This document shows positions 704 to 17,857 of a DNA stretch of 47,893 bases, one piece after another. The stretch comes from Gammaproteobacteria bacterium (GTDB lineage Bacteria; Pseudomonadota; Gammaproteobacteria; WFUO01): contig WFUO01000047.1 in NCBI GenBank assembly GCA_015484945.1, positions 1-47,893 of the forward strand, given 5' to 3'. The notes under the pieces are model-generated. The model made no database searches. It was not told where the DNA came from and saw nothing but the letters and a program-made list of their open reading frames with translations. A program made the translations under genes and the position numbers. The first letter of the stretch is position 1; each line of letters opens with the position of its first letter.

Positions 704-719
704 TATCCCTTTTGGGATA
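704..719. promoter_or_regulatory. 7-2-7 inverted repeat resembling a NarL-type operator
   Basis: The sequence TATCCCT-TT-TGGGATA contains a perfect 6-bp inverted repeat (TATCCC/GGGATA). The left half matches the NarL heptamer TACYYMT at 6 of 7 positions and the right half matches its complement at 5 of 7, in the 7-2-7 layout used by NarL/NarP. It lies 264 bp before dsrA. A NarL-like regulator is encoded at 16718-17365, just after the operon. That the regulator binds here is inference. Confidence 0.35.
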
Positions 720-923
720 GAAGTAGTGCCGATAACACCCCATCGGTTGGGTTTCCAACGCGCGCGCCCTGCCACTAGAATTCGTGCATGATTTTTCAGA
801 CTGCCTGAGAAATGGTTTACCGGTGCATGGCATCGGTTTGTTGTATCCGTCACAGGCACAGGCTGAGGCAGTAATCAGTATTTTTACCGTCTACCAGTGA
901 CAAGAAGTTGAAGGCTGGCAGGC

Positions 924-941
924 AAACAAAACGTTTTGGTT
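924..941. promoter_or_regulatory. Palindrome just upstream of dsrA
   Basis: CAAAACGTTTTG (927-938) is a perfect 12-bp palindrome. It extends to 924-941 with one mismatched pair and ends 42 bp before the dsrA start codon, next to a TATAAA. Its position fits an operator or activator site at the dsr promoter. No known regulator motif is recognised. Confidence 0.35.
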
Positions 942-982
942 TATAAAACTCCAATTTGATCACTTAGGTAAGGAGCTTACAC

Positions 983-2236
983 ATGGTCAAAAAGTATGAA
1001 ACTCCTATGCTGGACCAGCTGGAAGACGGCGTATGGCCGAGCTTTATTTCCGGTATCCGTCGTCTGGCGAACGAACACCCGGAAGAACGCATTCAGAGTA
1101 TGTGTCACTCGCTGCTGGGGCAACTCGAGCATTCATACGAGACCCGCAAGGGTTACTGGAAAGGCGGTACGGTTTCTGTCTTCGGGTACGGCGGCGGCAT
1201 CATCCCGCGTTTTTCCGAAGTTGGCGACGCCTTCCCTGCCTCACGTGAATTCCACACCCTGCGCGTTCAGCCACCTGCTGGCAACTACTACACTTCCGAC
1301 ATGCTGCGCCAGCTGGCCGATAGCTGGGAAAAATACGGTTCTGGCCTGATCACCTTCCACGGTCAGACTGGCAACATCATGTTCATCGGCACCACCACCG
1401 AGAACGTCCAGCACTTCTTCGATGAGATCAACGAATATGGTTGGGACCTCGGCGGTGCTGGTCCCTGCGTGCGCACTGCCATGTCCTGTGTTGGCGCGGC
1501 ACGCTGTGAACAATCCTGCGCCAATGAGCACAAGATTCATCGCCTGCTGGTCAACAACTTCATGGACGACATGCATCGCCCGGCGCTGCCCTACAAGTTC
1601 AAGTTCAAGGTATCGGGTTGCCCGAACGACTGCCAGAACGCCATCGAACGTGCCGACTTCGCCGTGATCGGCACCTGGCGTGACGATATGAAGGTCGATC
1701 AGGACGAGGTCAAGAAATACGTCGAAACCAAGGGCCGGCAGTACATCATCGACAATGTCATCAGCCGTTGTCCGACCAACGCCCTGGCACTGAAGGATGA
1801 CGACACCCTGGAAGTTGATAACCGCAACTGCGTACGCTGCATGCACTGCCTCAACGTCATGTGCAAGGCCCTGTCCCCCGGGGACGACAAGGGCGTCACC
1901 GTACTCATTGGCGGCAAGCGTACGCTGAAGATTGGCGACCTGATGGGTACCGTCATCGTTCCATTCAAGAAGCTGGAAACCGATGAAGACTATGAGGAAC
2001 TGGTCGAGCTGGCCGAGGAAACCATCGACTTCTTCGCCGAGAATGCGCTCGAGCACGAACGTACCGGTGAGATGATCGAGCGTATCGGTCTGGTCAACTT
2101 CCTCGAAGGCATCGGCGTTGAGGTTGATCCGCACATGATCAACAATCCGCGTGAATGCTCCTACGTCCGTACCGACATGTGGGACGAAGAAGCCGAGAAG
2201 TGGAACCGCCGCATGGCCGAAAAGGCTGCCGGCTAA
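983..2236 (+). CDS. dsrA: Dissimilatory sulfite reductase alpha subunit (reverse type)
   Basis: DsrA forms the cytoplasmic alpha2beta2 siroheme sulfite reductase with DsrB. In sulfur oxidisers it runs in reverse and oxidises DsrC-bound sulfane sulfur to sulfite. The 417-residue protein has the siroheme-[4Fe-4S] cysteines C169 and C175 (Cx5C) and C213 and C217 (Cx3C, in SGCPNDCQN). An inserted ferredoxin domain follows, with C263 and the group C283, C286, C289 and C294. The ATG has a strong Shine-Dalgarno sequence (AAGGAG) 7 nt upstream. It is the first gene of the operon. The oxidative direction is inferred from dsrEFH and dsrL nearby and the absence of dsrD. Confidence 0.98.
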   Translation: MVKKYETPMLDQLEDGVWPSFISGIRRLANEHPEERIQSMCHSLLGQLEHSYETRKGYWKGGTVSVFGYGGGIIPRFSEVGDAFPASREFHTLRVQPPAGNYYTSDMLRQLADSWEKYGSGLITFHGQTGNIMFIGTTTENVQHFFDEINEYGWDLGGAGPCVRTAMSCVGAARCEQSCANEHKIHRLLVNNFMDDMHRPALPYKFKFKVSGCPNDCQNAIERADFAVIGTWRDDMKVDQDEVKKYVETKGRQYIIDNVISRCPTNALALKDDDTLEVDNRNCVRCMHCLNVMCKALSPGDDKGVTVLIGGKRTLKIGDLMGTVIVPFKKLETDEDYEELVELAEETIDFFAENALEHERTGEMIERIGLVNFLEGIGVEVDPHMINNPRECSYVRTDMWDEEAEKWNRRMAEKAAG

Positions 2237-12128: not shown

Positions 12129-13133
12129 ATGTACTATGAAGAACATCCATTTGCCCAATACATACGCATACTTGGCAAGGGAAAGAATGGCTCACGCCCG
12201 CTGACCGAGGATGAAGCCTACGAGGCCATGAAGATGATCCTCAGAAAGGAAGTAACCGGGGAACAACTCGGCGCCTTTCTGATGCTGGAACGTATCAAGG
12301 AAGAAACCCCGCCAGAGCTGGCGGGTTTCGTACGCGCCACGCGAGAGACATTGGATGTTCCTGCTGACATGCCGCCCATTGATCTCGATTGGTCGTCCTA
12401 CGCCGGCAAGAAACGGCAATTGCCCTGGTATTTGCTGACCACCCTGCTGCTCGCCGAAAACGGCATCAGGATATTCATGCACGGAGCCAGTGGTCATACC
12501 AATGGCCGTATCTATACCAAGAACGTTCTGGCCGAAGTCGGACTAAAACCATGCACCAACATGCAGGAAGTACGTGCAAGCCTTGAACAAAACAATTTCG
12601 CCTATATGGATATCGAACACTTGTCACCAAGGTTGCATGAAATCATCGAGCTGCGGCCCTGGCTGGGGCTGAGATCACCAGTACATACGCTGGCGCGTAT
12701 GATCAACCCCTTCTCCGCCCCGTATGTCATGCAGGGTATCTTCCACCCCGGTTATCGCCCTGTACATCAGGAAACTGCCATCTTGCTGGGTGAAAAAAAT
12801 GTTGCCGTTGTCAAGGGTGATGGCGGTGAAATAGAACGCAACCCAGATATGGCCTGCCTGGTACAGAATGTACGTAATGGCGAAATGATCGATGAAGAAT
12901 GGCCAGCCATGTTTGACAAACGGCATGTACGTGACGATGTCATGGATACCACCCGCCTGCGAAAGGTGTGGAACGGCAGTGATGATGACGAGTACGCAAT
13001 AGCAGCTGTCATTGGTACGGCCGCTATCGCGCTGAGGCTGCTTGGCCGCGCACACGACATGGAATCTGCCGAATCCCTCGCCAGGGAAATGTGGGAACAA
13101 CGAAGCCGTGAGAAATACGGTACTGCCGCCTGA
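12129..13133 (+). CDS. TrpD2/YbiB-like protein (anthranilate phosphoribosyltransferase fold)
   Basis: The 334-residue protein looks like the TrpD2/YbiB branch of the nucleoside-phosphorylase/TrpD fold, often labelled 'glycosyl transferase family'. The N-terminal helical domain (about 1-75, with LTEDEAYEAM and EVTGEQLGAFLMLERIK) matches TrpD. The catalytic GTGGD phosphoribosyl-pyrophosphate motif is missing; the sequence there reads SSYAGKKRQLPW. The glycine-rich part is IFMHGASGHTNGR instead of KHGNR. Tryptophan biosynthesis is therefore unlikely, and E. coli YbiB binds nucleic acid. AGGAGG precedes the ATG. It sits between dsrP and dsrN, where A. vinosum has no such gene. Its role in sulfur oxidation is unknown. 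Confidence 0.85.
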   Translation: MYYEEHPFAQYIRILGKGKNGSRPLTEDEAYEAMKMILRKEVTGEQLGAFLMLERIKEETPPELAGFVRATRETLDVPADMPPIDLDWSSYAGKKRQLPWYLLTTLLLAENGIRIFMHGASGHTNGRIYTKNVLAEVGLKPCTNMQEVRASLEQNNFAYMDIEHLSPRLHEIIELRPWLGLRSPVHTLARMINPFSAPYVMQGIFHPGYRPVHQETAILLGEKNVAVVKGDGGEIERNPDMACLVQNVRNGEMIDEEWPAMFDKRHVRDDVMDTTRLRKVWNGSDDDEYAIAAVIGTAAIALRLLGRAHDMESAESLAREMWEQRSREKYGTAA

Positions 13134-13141
13134 GCAATTTC

Positions 13142-14548
13142 ATGCCGCGTCTGCTCATATCCGCAGCTCACAAGTCTTCCGGGAAGACCACAATCAGCAT
13201 TGGCCTGTGTGCCGCATTGAGGCATCGCGGCATGGATGTCCGCCCCTTCAAGAAAGGTCCTGACTACATCGACCCAATGTGGTTGGGCATGGCCGCGGGG
13301 CGTGCCTGTTACAATCTGGATTTCCATACCATGGAAGCAGATGAGATCGTCGCCCGCTTCAGGCAACATGCCGATGGTGGCGATGTATCCATCATCGAAG
13401 GCAACAAGGGCCTGTATGATGGCCTGGATCTGGACGGAAGCAACAGTAATGCGGCACTGGCCAGATTGTTGAATACCCCGGTGATACTGGTACTGGATGC
13501 GCGTGGCATGACCCGTGGCATTGCACCGCTGGTACTGGGGTACCAGGATTTTGACCCGGAAATCAGCATCCGAGGCGTTATCCTGAACCAGGTTGGGGGC
13601 AGCCGTCATGAAAGCAAACTGCGCAGTATTCTCGAACACTATACCGATGTCATGGTACTTGGCGCAGTGCACAAGAACCCGGAGCTCAATATCGACGAAC
13701 GGCATCTGGGCCTTGTTCCCAGCAATGAGTCCGGTCAGGCCAGGGATAAAATAGAACGTATCGCCCATACCCTCTCGAACGAGGTGGATCTCGATATGCT
13801 CATCAAACTGGCGCATGAGTCCGCATCACTGCCTGATGTGACGCCAATAACCGACATACCGCCACGGGGTCATCGCCTGCGTATTGGCATCGCGCATGAT
13901 TCGGCGTTTGGCTTCTACTATCCGGACGATCTGGAGGCCCTTACTGCGGCAGGTGCCGAGTTGGTGTTCTTCAGCCCGCTGACTGACGACCGGATACCGG
14001 ATGTGGATGCACTGTTTCTTGGCGGAGGATTCCCTGAAACCCATATGGAATCCCTTGCCGCAAACACCGGCATGCTGACATCGGTCCGCAAGGCCATCAC
14101 TTCTGGTCTGCCCGCCTATGCTGAATGTGGTGGACTGATGTACCTTGCCCGATCACTGCAATGGCATACCAGCAAGGTAAGGCTGGCTAATGTCATTCCC
14201 GGGGACATTATCATGCATGACAAGCCTCAAGGGCGTGGCTATATTCATCTGCTTGAGACCTCGGCCATGCCATGGCCCGATACACCGCCAGCGAACAGAG
14301 AAATACATGCGCACGAATTTCATTATTCGAGTATTGAAAATTTGCCATCAGATACCACTTATGCCTATACCGTCAGGCGGGGCCATGGTATCAATGGTAC
14401 TCATGACGGTATCGTTTGCCACAACCTGTTGGCAAATTATGCCCACATGCGTCACACGCGCAGTAATCAGTGGGCTTTCAGATTCGTGAAGTTCATCCGC
14501 GACATCCAGGCTGGCCAGAATGATTCAACGGCCAGTAAAGACAATTAG
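13142..14548 (+). CDS. dsrN: Siroheme amidase DsrN (CobB/CbiA-like)
   Basis: DsrN resembles cobyrinic acid a,c-diamide synthase and is believed to convert sirohaem to the sirohaem amide found in DsrAB. The N-terminal ATPase domain has a P-loop (HKSSGKTT, about 10-17) and KGPDYIDPMW (38-47). The C-terminal class I glutamine amidotransferase domain has LGGGFPE (293-299) and the nucleophile C329 in YAECGGLMYL, with a late histidine-rich segment (CHNLLANYAHMRH). The length is 468 residues. It starts 8 bp after the ybiB-like stop without a clear Shine-Dalgarno, suggesting translational coupling. Confidence 0.94.
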   Translation: MPRLLISAAHKSSGKTTISIGLCAALRHRGMDVRPFKKGPDYIDPMWLGMAAGRACYNLDFHTMEADEIVARFRQHADGGDVSIIEGNKGLYDGLDLDGSNSNAALARLLNTPVILVLDARGMTRGIAPLVLGYQDFDPEISIRGVILNQVGGSRHESKLRSILEHYTDVMVLGAVHKNPELNIDERHLGLVPSNESGQARDKIERIAHTLSNEVDLDMLIKLAHESASLPDVTPITDIPPRGHRLRIGIAHDSAFGFYYPDDLEALTAAGAELVFFSPLTDDRIPDVDALFLGGGFPETHMESLAANTGMLTSVRKAITSGLPAYAECGGLMYLARSLQWHTSKVRLANVIPGDIIMHDKPQGRGYIHLLETSAMPWPDTPPANREIHAHEFHYSSIENLPSDTTYAYTVRRGHGINGTHDGIVCHNLLANYAHMRHTRSNQWAFRFVKFIRDIQAGQNDSTASKDN

Positions 14549-14571: not shown

Positions 14572-14895
14572 ATGTTCAAGGTAACCGATGCAGCAGCTGC
14601 TGCCATTCGTGAATCAGCCAAACAGGCAAATGCTGAAGACATGGCCTTGCGCATCGCAGCCAAGGTCATTGATGACAAGGGAAACATCGAATACGGCATG
14701 GGATTCGATGAAAAAAAATCTCAAGACAGCAGTGTGATCAAGAGCGATGAGATCGAGATCATCATCGATTCAACCAGCATGGAGCTGCTGGAAGACTGCG
14801 AACTGGACTATGTGGAAATCACTGAGGGCCAATACCGGTTCATTTTCAAGAATCCACTGGATCCACAATACGTACCGCCCAAAGAAGACGATTGA
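14572..14895 (+). CDS. dsrR: IscA-like protein DsrR
   Basis: DsrR is an A-type carrier (IscA/HesB) homologue needed for normal dsr function in A. vinosum, apparently acting after transcription. The 107-residue protein has the A-type fold pattern. It lacks the three cluster cysteines of IscA: the terminal CGCG-type motif is replaced by NPLDPQYVPP, and only one cysteine (in LLEDCELDY) is seen. It therefore should not bind a cluster in the usual way. GGAGAG precedes the ATG. No dsrS-like gene follows; a two-component system is found instead. Confidence 0.93.
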   Translation: MFKVTDAAAAAIRESAKQANAEDMALRIAAKVIDDKGNIEYGMGFDEKKSQDSSVIKSDEIEIIIDSTSMELLEDCELDYVEITEGQYRFIFKNPLDPQYVPPKEDD

Positions 14896-15024
14896 CCAAA
14901 AACGGCAAAAATCCTCGCGGCATTTTTCGGCGGGTTGCTTGCCAGGCAAATGTTCCAGTCAGCGGTGATTTTGTAATATATTGTTTTTATAATGGTTTTT
15001 ATCTCATATCTGGCAGGCCGTAAA

Positions 15025-15043
15025 TACCTCTCAGGGGTATAAT
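15025..15043 (+). promoter_or_regulatory. Promoter of the NarX/NarL-like genes with overlapping NarL-type palindrome
   Basis: A perfect -10 hexamer TATAAT (15038-15043) shares its first bases with the palindrome TACCTCT-C-AGGGGTA (15025-15039). Both heptamers fully match the NarL consensus (TACYYMT and its complement), but the spacing is 1 bp rather than 2. No good -35 box is visible, as expected if an activator or repressor binds here. Transcription would start near 15050, at the annotated start codon. Another TATAAT lies at 14988-14993. Autoregulation by the adjacent response regulator is inference. The remaining gap from 14896 shows only a short AT stem. Confidence 0.5.
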
Positions 15044-15050
15044 AGACCAC

Positions 15051-16712
15051 ATGCAGACAAATCATTCGCAAAGCGCCATGCCGACAGCAGTTGAAAACGG
15101 TACGCATGCCACCGTCACGCCGGACATGCGTGACGGGCAGGAAAGTGCCAGCAGTGGCCACAGGCAGCTTGCGCGTGATTTGCTGTTCATGCCCGTTCTG
15201 TGGCTGTCGCTGGTCATGGCCTTGCTGATTCTGGCCAGCATCATAATACTGACCCAGGAGAATACCGGCCCGCATCTGCTGTTGATACAGATTGGTCTGT
15301 TGCTGATGGGCGCCTCGGCTGTGGCTGTCATCATTCATCGCCTCAACCGGCGAATAATCGAACCGCTTGATCAGGTTCGACACTGGGCCAGCAACATATG
15401 CAATGGTGACTTCTCCAAACCTTTGACTCCACCGGAGGATGGTCCCTTTGCTGAGCTGTTCAGGGATATCAACAAACTGGGAGAATGCCTCAGCCGGCTG
15501 GCCAGGGATCTGGACAAGGAAGTCAATATACACAGTGAAAAGATCGCTATCAAGAACCGTTCCCTGGAGATCTTGTACGATGTCGCTGCGAGCATCAATG
15601 TGTCCAGTGATCTCGATGAATTGTTGTTGCGATTTCTCGAGACCCTCAAGGACGAGGTTAACGCGCGTGCCGCCACCATTCGCCTGACCAATGACGAGGG
15701 TCAGATGGAGCTCGTTGCGAGCCTGGGCCTGGACGACAATATCATAGACAAGGAAAAGGTCATTCCCATCAATCGCTGCCTGTGCGGCAAGGCCATTGTC
15801 TCCGGTGAATTGATGTCACAGGATACTGTGCGCGAATGCAACCAGTTCGCCTGCGACTCTTTCTTCAACAACGATGATGTCGAGGTCATCGCAGTTCCAT
15901 TGCAGCATCGTGGAAAGACCTTGGGGGTTTACAACCTTTTCGTTGACAAGCCCGGCCTGATACACCGGGAAGATACCAAGGATCTTCTCAACAGCATCGG
16001 CAAGCACCTTGGCATGGCGATAGAAAAAGCCCGAGTGGAAGAAGAGTCCAAGCGGCTGTCTATACGCCGTGAGCGCAACATGCTCTCACACGAACTGCAT
16101 GATTCACTGGCCCAGACACTTGCCAGCTTGCGCTTTCAGGCGCTTAACCTGGATGATTCCATCAAGCAGAATAATATCGATACGGCACGTAAGGAGATCC
16201 AGATCATCCGTAACGGACTTGATGAGGCATATACAGAGCTGCGTGAACTACTGGCTCACTTCCGTGCCCCGTTTGATGAACGCGGCCTGATCGCTGCAAT
16301 CGAGAAGGTCATCGATCGCTTCCGTCGTGAGAGTGGCATGCTGATTTTCTTCCAGAATGAATGGAACCAGGTGGAACTGCCATCTGTCATGGAACTTCAG
16401 GTTCTACGGATCATCCAGGAAGCATTGAACAATATCAAGAAACACAGCAAGGCGCATGCGGTACGTGTATTGCTGCGCAGCGACGATGTTGAAACCCAGA
16501 TGGTGCTGATCGAGGACGATGGTATCGGTATCAATTCACCGGTGCTGGATGGCAAACCTGGTGAGCATATCGGCCTCTCGATCATGAAGGAACGAGCCAG
16601 CCGGCTTGGTGGCGTTCTGAGAATAGAATCCGAACCCGGTGAAGGCACACGCCTGATCCTCACCTTCCCACGTGTGCCCTATGACCAGGGCGAATTGCTG
16701 GAATTCAACTGA
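15051..16712 (+). CDS. NarX-like sensor histidine kinase without periplasmic sensor domain
   Basis: This is a HisKA_3-type kinase partner of the adjacent response regulator. Two transmembrane helices (about 44-67 and 75-97) are joined by a very short loop, so the periplasmic nitrate-sensing domain of NarX is absent. A HAMP-like linker (about 98-150), a Y-box-like LEILYDVAASIN (172-183) and a GAF-like domain follow. That domain contains a four-cysteine set: C243, C245, C263 and C268. The H-box SHELHDSLAQ has H350 as phosphoacceptor, and the ATPase domain ends the protein. Sensing is therefore probably cytoplasmic, perhaps redox or sulfur. The start is uncertain: 15051 has no Shine-Dalgarno and 15078 or 15126 are alternatives. 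Confidence 0.88.
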   Translation: MQTNHSQSAMPTAVENGTHATVTPDMRDGQESASSGHRQLARDLLFMPVLWLSLVMALLILASIIILTQENTGPHLLLIQIGLLLMGASAVAVIIHRLNRRIIEPLDQVRHWASNICNGDFSKPLTPPEDGPFAELFRDINKLGECLSRLARDLDKEVNIHSEKIAIKNRSLEILYDVAASINVSSDLDELLLRFLETLKDEVNARAATIRLTNDEGQMELVASLGLDDNIIDKEKVIPINRCLCGKAIVSGELMSQDTVRECNQFACDSFFNNDDVEVIAVPLQHRGKTLGVYNLFVDKPGLIHREDTKDLLNSIGKHLGMAIEKARVEEESKRLSIRRERNMLSHELHDSLAQTLASLRFQALNLDDSIKQNNIDTARKEIQIIRNGLDEAYTELRELLAHFRAPFDERGLIAAIEKVIDRFRRESGMLIFFQNEWNQVELPSVMELQVLRIIQEALNNIKKHSKAHAVRVLLRSDDVETQMVLIEDDGIGINSPVLDGKPGEHIGLSIMKERASRLGGVLRIESEPGEGTRLILTFPRVPYDQGELLEFN

Positions 16713-16717
16713 GCACC

Positions 16718-17365
16718 ATGAAAGTACTCCTGATTGATGACCATGCCCTCTTCCGCATCGGACTCGAAGGTTTGTTGGAGCGCCGCGAAATCGAGGTCGT
16801 TGCATCAGTCAGCACCGGTATAGAAGGCGTCAGCCGCGCACGGGAACTTCAGCCCGATGTCATCCTGCTCGACATGCGCATGCCGGACATGAATGGCATT
16901 CAGACCCTGAGAGAGATACGCGACAACGAAATCGAAATCCCGGTCGTGATGCTGACCACCAGCAGCGAGGAACGTGACCTGATAGAATCCTTGCGTAATG
17001 GCGCCCAGGGTTACCTGCTCAAGGACATGGATCCCGACGACCTGGTCAATGCCCTGCACGACATCGTATCAGGGAAGACTGTCGTTGCGCCCGAGCTGGC
17101 AGGCGTTTTGGCCAAGGTCGTGCAGCAAGGCAATAACAGTAACAATAGTGATCCAGCACCTTTTGCCGACCTGACACCACGTGAACATGAGATCCTGTGC
17201 CATCTGGCAGAAGGACAGAGCAACAAGGTGATCGCACGCAAGCTGGGCATCTCCGACGGCACCGTGAAACTGCACGTCAAATCCGTGCTGCGCAAACTGG
17301 GCGTACATTCACGCGTAGAGGCCGCGGTCATCGCTGTAGAACAGGATCTGTGTCAGAAACGATAA
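16718..17365 (+). CDS. NarL/FixJ-family response regulator
   Basis: The 215-residue protein has a receiver domain with acidic pocket D7-D8 and phosphoacceptor D52 (VILLDMRMPD), and a conserved K in LLKDMD. It ends with a LuxR/NarL-type helix-turn-helix (LTPREHEILCHLAEGQSNKV to about residue 210). It begins 5 bp after the kinase stop, so the pair is co-transcribed and almost certainly cognate. Its position just after dsrNR and before a rhodanese gene makes regulation of sulfur oxidation an attractive hypothesis. NarL-like boxes upstream of the kinase and of dsrA fit this but prove nothing. Confidence 0.93.
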   Translation: MKVLLIDDHALFRIGLEGLLERREIEVVASVSTGIEGVSRARELQPDVILLDMRMPDMNGIQTLREIRDNEIEIPVVMLTTSSEERDLIESLRNGAQGYLLKDMDPDDLVNALHDIVSGKTVVAPELAGVLAKVVQQGNNSNNSDPAPFADLTPREHEILCHLAEGQSNKVIARKLGISDGTVKLHVKSVLRKLGVHSRVEAAVIAVEQDLCQKR

Positions 17366-17389: not shown

Positions 17390-17857
17390 ATGAACAAGAA
17401 GTTTACCGATCTCATTAGAGAATGCCTAAACAGCGTCGAGGAATGTTTTCCGTGGGACGTGGAGGAAAAACTGGAACAGGGGAAAGATTGCCTGATTGTT
17501 GATGTTCGCGAGCCATATGAGTTCGATTTTGCCCGAATCGAACAGTCCATCAACGTACCCCGCGGAATCCTTGAGTCCGCATGCGACTGGGGCTATGACG
17601 ATACGATCCCCGAACTGGCTAGTGCCAGGAACAGGGAGATCATTGTCGTGTGCCGCTCGGGAAACCGCAGCATACTTGCCGCCTACACGATGCAACAAAT
17701 GGGTTACCGAAAAGTCGTATCCATGAAGACCGGCCTTCGCGGCTGGAACGACAACGAACAGCCACTGATAGACAAGGACGGCAATCCGGTTGACGTGGAC
17801 GATGCGGAAGAGTTTCTGGCCAGCAAGGTACGTCCAGATCAGATGGCGCCGGCCTGA
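17390..17857 (+). CDS. Rhodanese-like sulfurtransferase
   Basis: This is a single-domain rhodanese of 155 residues with CDC25-like features: LIVDVREPYEF (35-45), the active-site loop VCRSGNRS with C88, and a GLRGWN C-terminal signature. No signal peptide is visible, so it is cytoplasmic. Rhodaneses feed persulfide sulfur into TusA and DsrEFH relays in many sulfur oxidisers. It lies 24 bp after the response regulator on the same strand and may share its transcript. The Shine-Dalgarno is weak. The substrate is not predictable. Confidence 0.92.
   Translation: MNKKFTDLIRECLNSVEECFPWDVEEKLEQGKDCLIVDVREPYEFDFARIEQSINVPRGILESACDWGYDDTIPELASARNREIIVVCRSGNRSILAAYTMQQMGYRKVVSMKTGLRGWNDNEQPLIDKDGNPVDVDDAEEFLASKVRPDQMAPA

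What the first reader, a model, noticed from the sequence alone, without database searches (positions are those of the whole stretch)
15025..15043. NarL-type palindrome overlapping the kinase -10 box
TACCTCT-C-AGGGGTA matches the NarL heptamers at all 14 positions, with a 1-bp instead of a 2-bp spacer, and runs into a perfect TATAAT. It suggests autoregulation of the two-component genes. The predicted transcription start coincides with the annotated start codon, so the true start codon may be 15078 or later, or the mRNA is leaderless.
Basis: partly seen in the sequence, partly recalled or inferred. Interest (0 to 1): 0.55.

Follow-up and report, generated by a model that had tools for sequence, protein, structure and literature searches.

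The report
Sulfur-operon regulator and its DNA sites
The reported DNA palindrome in front of a sensor-kinase gene is really there but is not conserved in relatives; following it led to a different, strongly conserved pair of DNA sites in front of the sulfur-oxidation (dsr) genes, which are probably the true targets of the neighbouring regulator.

Summary
The sequence observation is correct: TACCTCT-C-AGGGGTA at 15025-15039, running into TATAAT at 15038-15043, 7 nt before ATG 15051. The genes are a NarX/NarQ-like kinase and a NarL-like response regulator (RR) at the end of a dsr (reverse sulfite reductase) cluster. As a NarL site the palindrome is one base short (7-1-7). It occurs once in the 1.81-Mb genome (about 1.7 expected by chance) and in 0 of 80 orthologous kinase promoters; one of the 80 (L094) has a near match. 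The RR recognition helix is invariant in 76 of 76 orthologs, so a general autoregulatory site should have been conserved.

The likely real operator lies 14 kb upstream, at the dsrA promoter: TATCCCTTTTGGGATA (704-719), exact NarL 7-2-7 geometry with C3 changed to T; the RR carries Leu at NarL Val189. A second element (736-753) and a -10 (776-781) follow at nearly fixed spacing in relatives. The operator (11 or more of 12 positions) is in 58 of 70 dsrA promoters from genomes with the RR and 0 of 6 without it. The kinase palindrome uses the same half-sites with a 3-bp instead of a 4-bp spacer: fortuitous, or a lineage-specific, probably repressive, site. Binding is inferred throughout.

The parts
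15025..15039 (.). Reported palindrome TACCTCT-C-AGGGGTA (7-1-7); also TACCTC-N3-GGGGTA
   Evidence: not conserved in 80 orthologs
15038..15043 (+). TATAAT, putative -10 of the kinase promoter, overlapping the palindrome by TA
   Evidence: no -35 found; 7 nt before ATG
14988..14993 (+). Second TATAAT, possible alternative -10 giving a leader of about 50 nt
   Evidence: sequence; no -35 partner in the scan
15051..16712 (+). NarX/NarQ-like sensor kinase: two TM stretches with a short loop, HAMP-like, GAF, HisKA_3, HATPase_c
16718..17365 (+). NarL-like response regulator (receiver + GerE)
17390..17857 (+). Rhodanese-domain protein, often next to the pair in relatives
14572..14895 (+). dsrR (IscA-like)
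   Evidence: upstream of the kinase in many orthologs
13142..14548 (+). dsrN (CobB-like)
704..719 (.). Proposed primary operator TATCCCTTTTGGGATA (7-2-7 geometry), centre about -76.5 of dsrA
736..753 (.). Second conserved element CACCCCATCGGTTGGGTT, centre about -43.5 of dsrA
776..781 (+). TAGAAT, putative -10 of dsrA, 72 bp after the operator start
983..2236 (+). dsrA, first gene of the dsr cluster

Best explanation
The kinase-RR pair is a dedicated regulator of the dsr sulfur-oxidation operon. Its conserved target is the dsrA promoter: a phosphorylated NarL-like dimer binds TATCCC-N4-GGGATA at about -76 and probably a second element at about -43, and activates dsr transcription. The palindrome at 15025-15039 is built from the same half-sites but is one base short and is absent from orthologous kinase promoters, so it is mainly a fortuitous arrangement around a strong -10 box, or at most a weak lineage-specific site. 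Shown: the sequences, their conservation, the spacing, the co-occurrence with the RR. Inferred: binding, activation, and the signal.
For: dsrA operator at 11 or more of 12 positions in 58 of 70 RR+ and 0 of 6 RR- dsrA promoters (Fisher p 8.5e-5); shuffles 17 of 1400; reversed-pattern control 0 of 70. Of the 58 sites, a CM[CT][CT]CC element was found downstream for 48, at 31-36 bp in 46 of those 48, and a -10-like box for 48, at 70-76 bp in 44 of those 48. The operator has NarL's 16-bp 7-2-7 layout with C3->T; the RR keeps K188 and K192 and has Leu at 189 in 76 of 76. The dsrN-dsrR-kinase-RR order recurs widely. In 8 of 9 genomes reached through named records at least one dsrA copy has 11 or more of 12, including Marichromatium bheemlicum DSM 18632. 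The kinase palindrome is not conserved: 0 of 80 at 12 of 12, 1 of 80 at 11 with the N3 pattern, 1 of 80 at 11 or more with the N4 pattern; single heptamers in kinase upstreams 19 against 15.1 +- 4.3 shuffled.
Against: 12 of 70 RR+ dsrA promoters lack the operator at this threshold; for at least L167 the dsrA start was probably misplaced. The 6 RR- genomes come from only three families, so they are few independent cases. Another regulator inherited together with the RR could be the binder. A perfect TATCCCGTACGGGATA also lies near an ssb-like gene in this genome. The kinase palindrome's half-site pair is unusual for its stretch (2 of 3000 shuffles), and one ortholog (L094) has a near match with the same spacing. 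No binding or expression data exist.
Confidence: 0.62

Rival explanations
1. One reading: the RR binds 15025-15039 and autoregulates the pair (in addition to any role at dsrA). From its position (centre about -18, over the -10) this would be repression, as described for the NarL 7-2-7 site near the frdA start (passage of PMC4549865).
For: Both half-sites match the independently derived family half-site; score reached by 2 of 3000 shuffles; L094 has TATCCC-N3-TGGGTA upstream of its kinase; the NarL-like recognition lysines are kept.
Against: No comparable N3 site in 79 of 80 orthologs; 3-bp instead of 4-bp spacer, while all 28 dsrA upstreams at that score have 4; genome-wide count equals chance.
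Confidence: 0.33
2. The dsrA palindrome is bound by some other protein co-inherited with the dsr cluster (for example DsrC, for which a regulatory DNA-binding role in Allochromatium was proposed; recalled, paper not held), and the RR acts elsewhere.
For: Only co-occurrence and geometry link the site to the RR; DsrC is encoded in the window.
Against: 0 of 6 dsrA promoters of RR-lacking genomes have the site; NarL-like layout and base contacts; RR adjacent to dsr genes in many genomes.
Confidence: 0.15
3. The kinase palindrome works as RNA: a hairpin (UACCUC-UCA-GGGGUA) that hides a weak ribosome site AGGGG in read-through transcripts of the dsr operon.
For: A 7-bp hairpin is predicted at -6.6 kcal/mol.
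Against: z-score -0.95, 33 of 200 shuffles fold at least as well; palindrome not conserved; AGGGG is 13 nt from the ATG.
Confidence: 0.05

Closest known systems
NarX/NarQ-NarL of Escherichia coli
   Same: Kinase matches NarQ and NarX models best; RR matches NarL best; K188 and K192 kept; the dsrA operator has the 16-bp 7-2-7 layout of NarL's high-affinity site.
   Different: Below NCBIfam cut-offs for NarX, NarQ and NarL; only a short loop between the two TM stretches, so no room for the periplasmic nitrate-binding domain (domain recalled); operator has T at position 3; RR has Leu189; encoded with dsr; no narG over the cut-off in the 76%-complete genome.
NarX-NarL annotated in Allochromatium vinosum (Alvin_1057/1058)
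   Same: PMC3368242 (passage) notes a NarX-NarL pair in a sulfur oxidiser without obvious nitrate reduction genes; it may be the ortholog.
   Different: Orthology not tested here; the A. vinosum sequence was not reached by name.
RsrS-RsrR of Acidithiobacillus caldus
   Same: A two-component system regulating sulfur oxidation (listing and start of abstract only, PMC5093147).
   Different: Regulates the tetrathionate intermediate pathway, not dsr.

Membership tests
NarL binding site (7-2-7) | Two inverted TACYNMT-like heptamers | tested here: met
   12 of 12 informative positions at 15025-15039; consensus recalled
NarL binding site (7-2-7) | 2-bp spacer between heptamers (PMC4549865) | tested here: not met
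   Spacer is 1 bp; the canonical form occurs 0 times in the genome
Autoregulatory site of this RR family | Conserved in orthologous kinase promoters | tested here: not met
   0 of 80 at 12 of 12, 1 of 80 at 11
Proposed dsrA operator TAYCYC-N4-GRGRTA | Present in dsrA promoters of RR+ genomes, absent without the RR | tested here: met
   58 of 70 against 0 of 6
Proposed dsrA operator TAYCYC-N4-GRGRTA | Bound by the RR | not testable with these tools
   needs gel shift or DAP-seq
NarL (NCBIfam NF007935) | Score over the curated cut-off of 250 | tested here: not met
   234.5 bits
NarL/FixJ-type response regulators | Receiver plus GerE domain, conserved phospho-acceptor Asp | tested here: met
   PF00072 and PF00196; D52 invariant in 21 aligned
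NarX/NarQ nitrate sensors | NCBIfam equivalog cut-offs | tested here: not met
   NarQ 216.8 of 553, NarX 160.3 of 578
NarX/NarQ nitrate sensors | Periplasmic nitrate-binding domain between TM1 and TM2 (recalled) | tested here: not met
   Hydropathy shows two TM stretches close together within about residues 41-95

The most novel reading that the evidence does not exclude
Pairs annotated as nitrate sensors NarX-NarL in many gammaproteobacterial sulfur oxidisers are in fact the dedicated switch of the dsr operon: the kinase senses intracellular reduced sulfur or redox state through a conserved CxC...C cysteine set in its GAF domain, the RR activates dsrA from a changed NarL operator (TATCCC-N4-GGGATA, explained by V189L), and in this lineage a shortened operator adds negative feedback on the kinase.
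Probability: 0.2. Interest if true: 0.75.

Novelty: new variant of a known kind. Interest (0 to 1): 0.52.

Why it matters
The dsr pathway is a main route for oxidising stored sulfur, and my searches of the held open-access library found no regulator with a defined DNA site for it (subscription papers not covered). A conserved operator with near-fixed promoter geometry, tied to a regulator encoded in the same cluster, makes dsr regulation directly testable in culturable relatives such as Marichromatium, and suggests that some NarX-NarL annotations in sulfur bacteria may mislead. The palindrome that started this is by itself a minor feature.

Tried and rejected
NarL regulon in this genome: rejected; the 7-1-7 pattern occurs once and the 7-2-7 pattern zero times. 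Conservation of the palindrome in kinase promoters: rejected in 80 fetched orthologs. The 80 are those fetched of 101 non-window places; 21 were left out, mostly partial hits, contig-edge hits and the lower scores. An excess of 11-of-12 NarL-pattern hits (5 of 80 against 0.8 shuffled) was looked at: the hits use mixed spacers and scattered positions, so I treat it as unexplained, not as support. De novo search of kinase upstreams gave mainly words from the coding tail of dsrR and GC-rich words, no convincing shared operator. RNA hairpin: weak. A first genome-contig scan with the kinase found nothing. In the second scan (80 RR loci), 68 had an adjacent kinase ortholog (12 had none); none of these kinase upstreams gave a pair score above 8.0, but several stretches began inside the gene because the alignment started late, and 4 duplicated earlier loci. 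First dsrA set: 40 regions chosen for contig length, dsrA found in 35, plus the window. Second set: 23 of 24 dsrA+ genomes without a strong kinase hit (one dropped, dsrA cut by a contig end) plus 17 with the pair. Of the 23, 17 turned out to have an RR at E 1e-50 or better and were counted as RR+. Other genomic matches of the operator outside dsrA were listed but not annotated. Papers: passages only of PMC11406059, PMC4287430, PMC6382920, PMC4549865, PMC3368242 and PMC4136832; all others as search listings with abstract starts. The Grimm 2010 papers on dsr regulation and DsrR were not held and are recalled only.

Full report
What is there. The reported sequence is exact: TACCTCT-C-AGGGGTA at 15025-15039, TATAAT at 15038-15043, ATG at 15051. 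The window carries a dsr cluster: dsrA, dsrB, dsrE, dsrH, dsrC, dsrM and a dsrK-like gene are supported by Pfam; dsrF, dsrL, dsrJ, dsrO and dsrP are named from ORF order and recall; dsrN and dsrR by Pfam and NCBIfam. Then come a kinase (HAMP-like, GAF, HisKA_3, HATPase_c), a response regulator (receiver, GerE) and a rhodanese.

Is the palindrome more than chance? In the genome (1.81 Mb, 76% complete, no closer relative than the same class among those searched) the 7-1-7 pattern occurs once, at this site, and the 7-2-7 pattern never. About 1.7 are expected for a pattern of this size (arithmetic). Inside the kinase upstream stretch it is unusual: 2 of 3000 shuffles. That is suggestive only, since the site was selected for being notable.

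Conservation. Kinase orthologs at E 1e-95 or better occur in 102 of 369 genomes of the class, the window's own included. I fetched 80 of the 101 non-window loci. The order dsrN-dsrR-kinase-RR, often with the rhodanese, recurs in many of them. The full NarL pattern is found in none of the 80 kinase upstreams, and single heptamers are not enriched (19 against 15.1 +- 4.3). The RR recognition helix reads DGTVKLHVK in 76 of 76 RRs, the window's included: NarL Lys188 and Lys192 kept, Val189 replaced by Leu. A regulator whose reading head never changes should keep its site; it has not kept this one.

The conserved site. dsrA was found in 35 of 40 fetched regions. With the window that makes 36 dsrA upstreams, of which 29 carry TAYCYC-N4-GRGRTA at 11 or more of 12 positions. 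Across 76 genomes the pattern reaches 11 or 12 of 12 in 58 of 70 genomes that have the RR and in 0 of 6 that do not (Fisher p 8.5e-5, not corrected for relatedness; the six belong to three families). Shuffles reach it in 17 of 1400 and the reversed pattern in 0 of 70. Among the 58 sites a second element (CACCCCAT-like) was found in 48, at 31-36 bp in 46 of these; a -10-like box was found in 48, at 70-76 bp in 44 of these, at exactly 72 in 29. In the window this gives an operator at 704-719, an element at 736-753 and TAGAAT at 776-781. If transcription starts near 788, the two sites are centred near -76.5 and -43.5, 33 bp or about three helical turns apart, a usual arrangement for an activator (inference). 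Of nine genomes reached through named records, eight have the operator at 11 or more of 12 upstream of at least one dsrA copy, among them Marichromatium bheemlicum DSM 18632 and Thiothrix singaporensis; Thioalkalivibrio sp. HK1 has 10.

How the two fit. NarL's high-affinity test site is TACCCCTAAAGGGGTA (passage in PMC4549865). The dsrA operator has the same length and layout with T for C at position 3, alongside the Val-to-Leu change in the recognition helix; that the one causes the other is inference. With half-sites weighted from 58 dsrA sites, the window's three best pairs are 704 (22.5 bits, spacer 4), 38214 (15.9, spacer 4) and 15025 (15.9, spacer 3). Thus the palindrome is made of legitimate half-sites, one base too close. 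All 28 dsrA upstreams (of 36) at or above that score have spacer 4. The N3 form occurs once in the genome, here. One ortholog, L094, carries a comparable N3 pair upstream of its kinase. So lineage-specific autoregulation remains possible; its place over the -10 would make it repressive, as NarL represses frdA from a site near the start (PMC4549865).

Start codon. A -10-like box 6-8 nt before an in-frame ATG or GTG also occurs in 6 of 80 orthologs (L072, L076, L082, L086, L091, L125), three of which begin VQTT where the window begins MQTN. This favours ATG 15051 and a leaderless mRNA, but no shuffle control was run, and a second TATAAT at 14988-14993 is an alternative.

What the pair senses. 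It is unlikely to be nitrate: the two membrane stretches are separated by only a short loop, the NarX and NarQ cut-offs are missed by far, and no narG over the cut-off was found in this incomplete genome. Three GAF-domain cysteines are conserved (C243 in 68, C245 in 66, C263 in 69 of 81), a candidate sensor of redox or reduced sulfur. Cysteines are also known in the middle part of NarX/NarQ (recalled), so this is only a lead.

Known work. Searches of the held library found no dsr regulator with a defined operator. PMC3368242 (passages) states that A. [quoted passage not shown]

Verdict. Observation confirmed; interpretation partly supported. The palindrome itself is a modest feature. The conserved dsrA operator and its proposed regulator are the useful result.

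Noticed in passing
window 704-781: Conserved operator, second element and -10 upstream of dsrA with near-fixed spacing; treated as the main result here.
   Followed up: yes
window 15777-15839 (kinase residues 243-263): CxC...C cysteines in the GAF domain conserved in 66-69 of 81 kinases; possible redox, Fe-S or sulfane-sulfur sensing.
   Followed up: partly
L183 1501-1516 (G000:C54:20507-20522): Perfect TATCCCGTACGGGATA just upstream of an ssb-like gene in the same genome; function unknown, may be chance.
   Followed up: partly
L094, about 70-80 bases upstream of the kinase start: TATCCCTTTTGGGTA (3-bp spacer) upstream of a kinase that follows dsrN without a dsrR match, in a genome whose dsrA upstream (L158) lacks the operator.
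   Followed up: partly
L324, L328-L332: In three genomes with two dsrA copies, one copy has the operator at 11-12 of 12 and the other scores 8-10: possible split in regulation between paralogs.
   Followed up: no
window 788-982: dsrA would have a leader of about 195 nt; the operator-to-ATG distance is 117-310 (median 227) in the 58 sites.
   Followed up: no
window 12129-13133: A TrpD-like / PRK09071 glycosyltransferase-family gene lies between dsrP and dsrN.
   Followed up: no
L226, L228, L229, L230, L231, L234, L236, L238: Further strict operator matches outside dsrA promoters in relatives with the pair; contexts not annotated.
   Followed up: no
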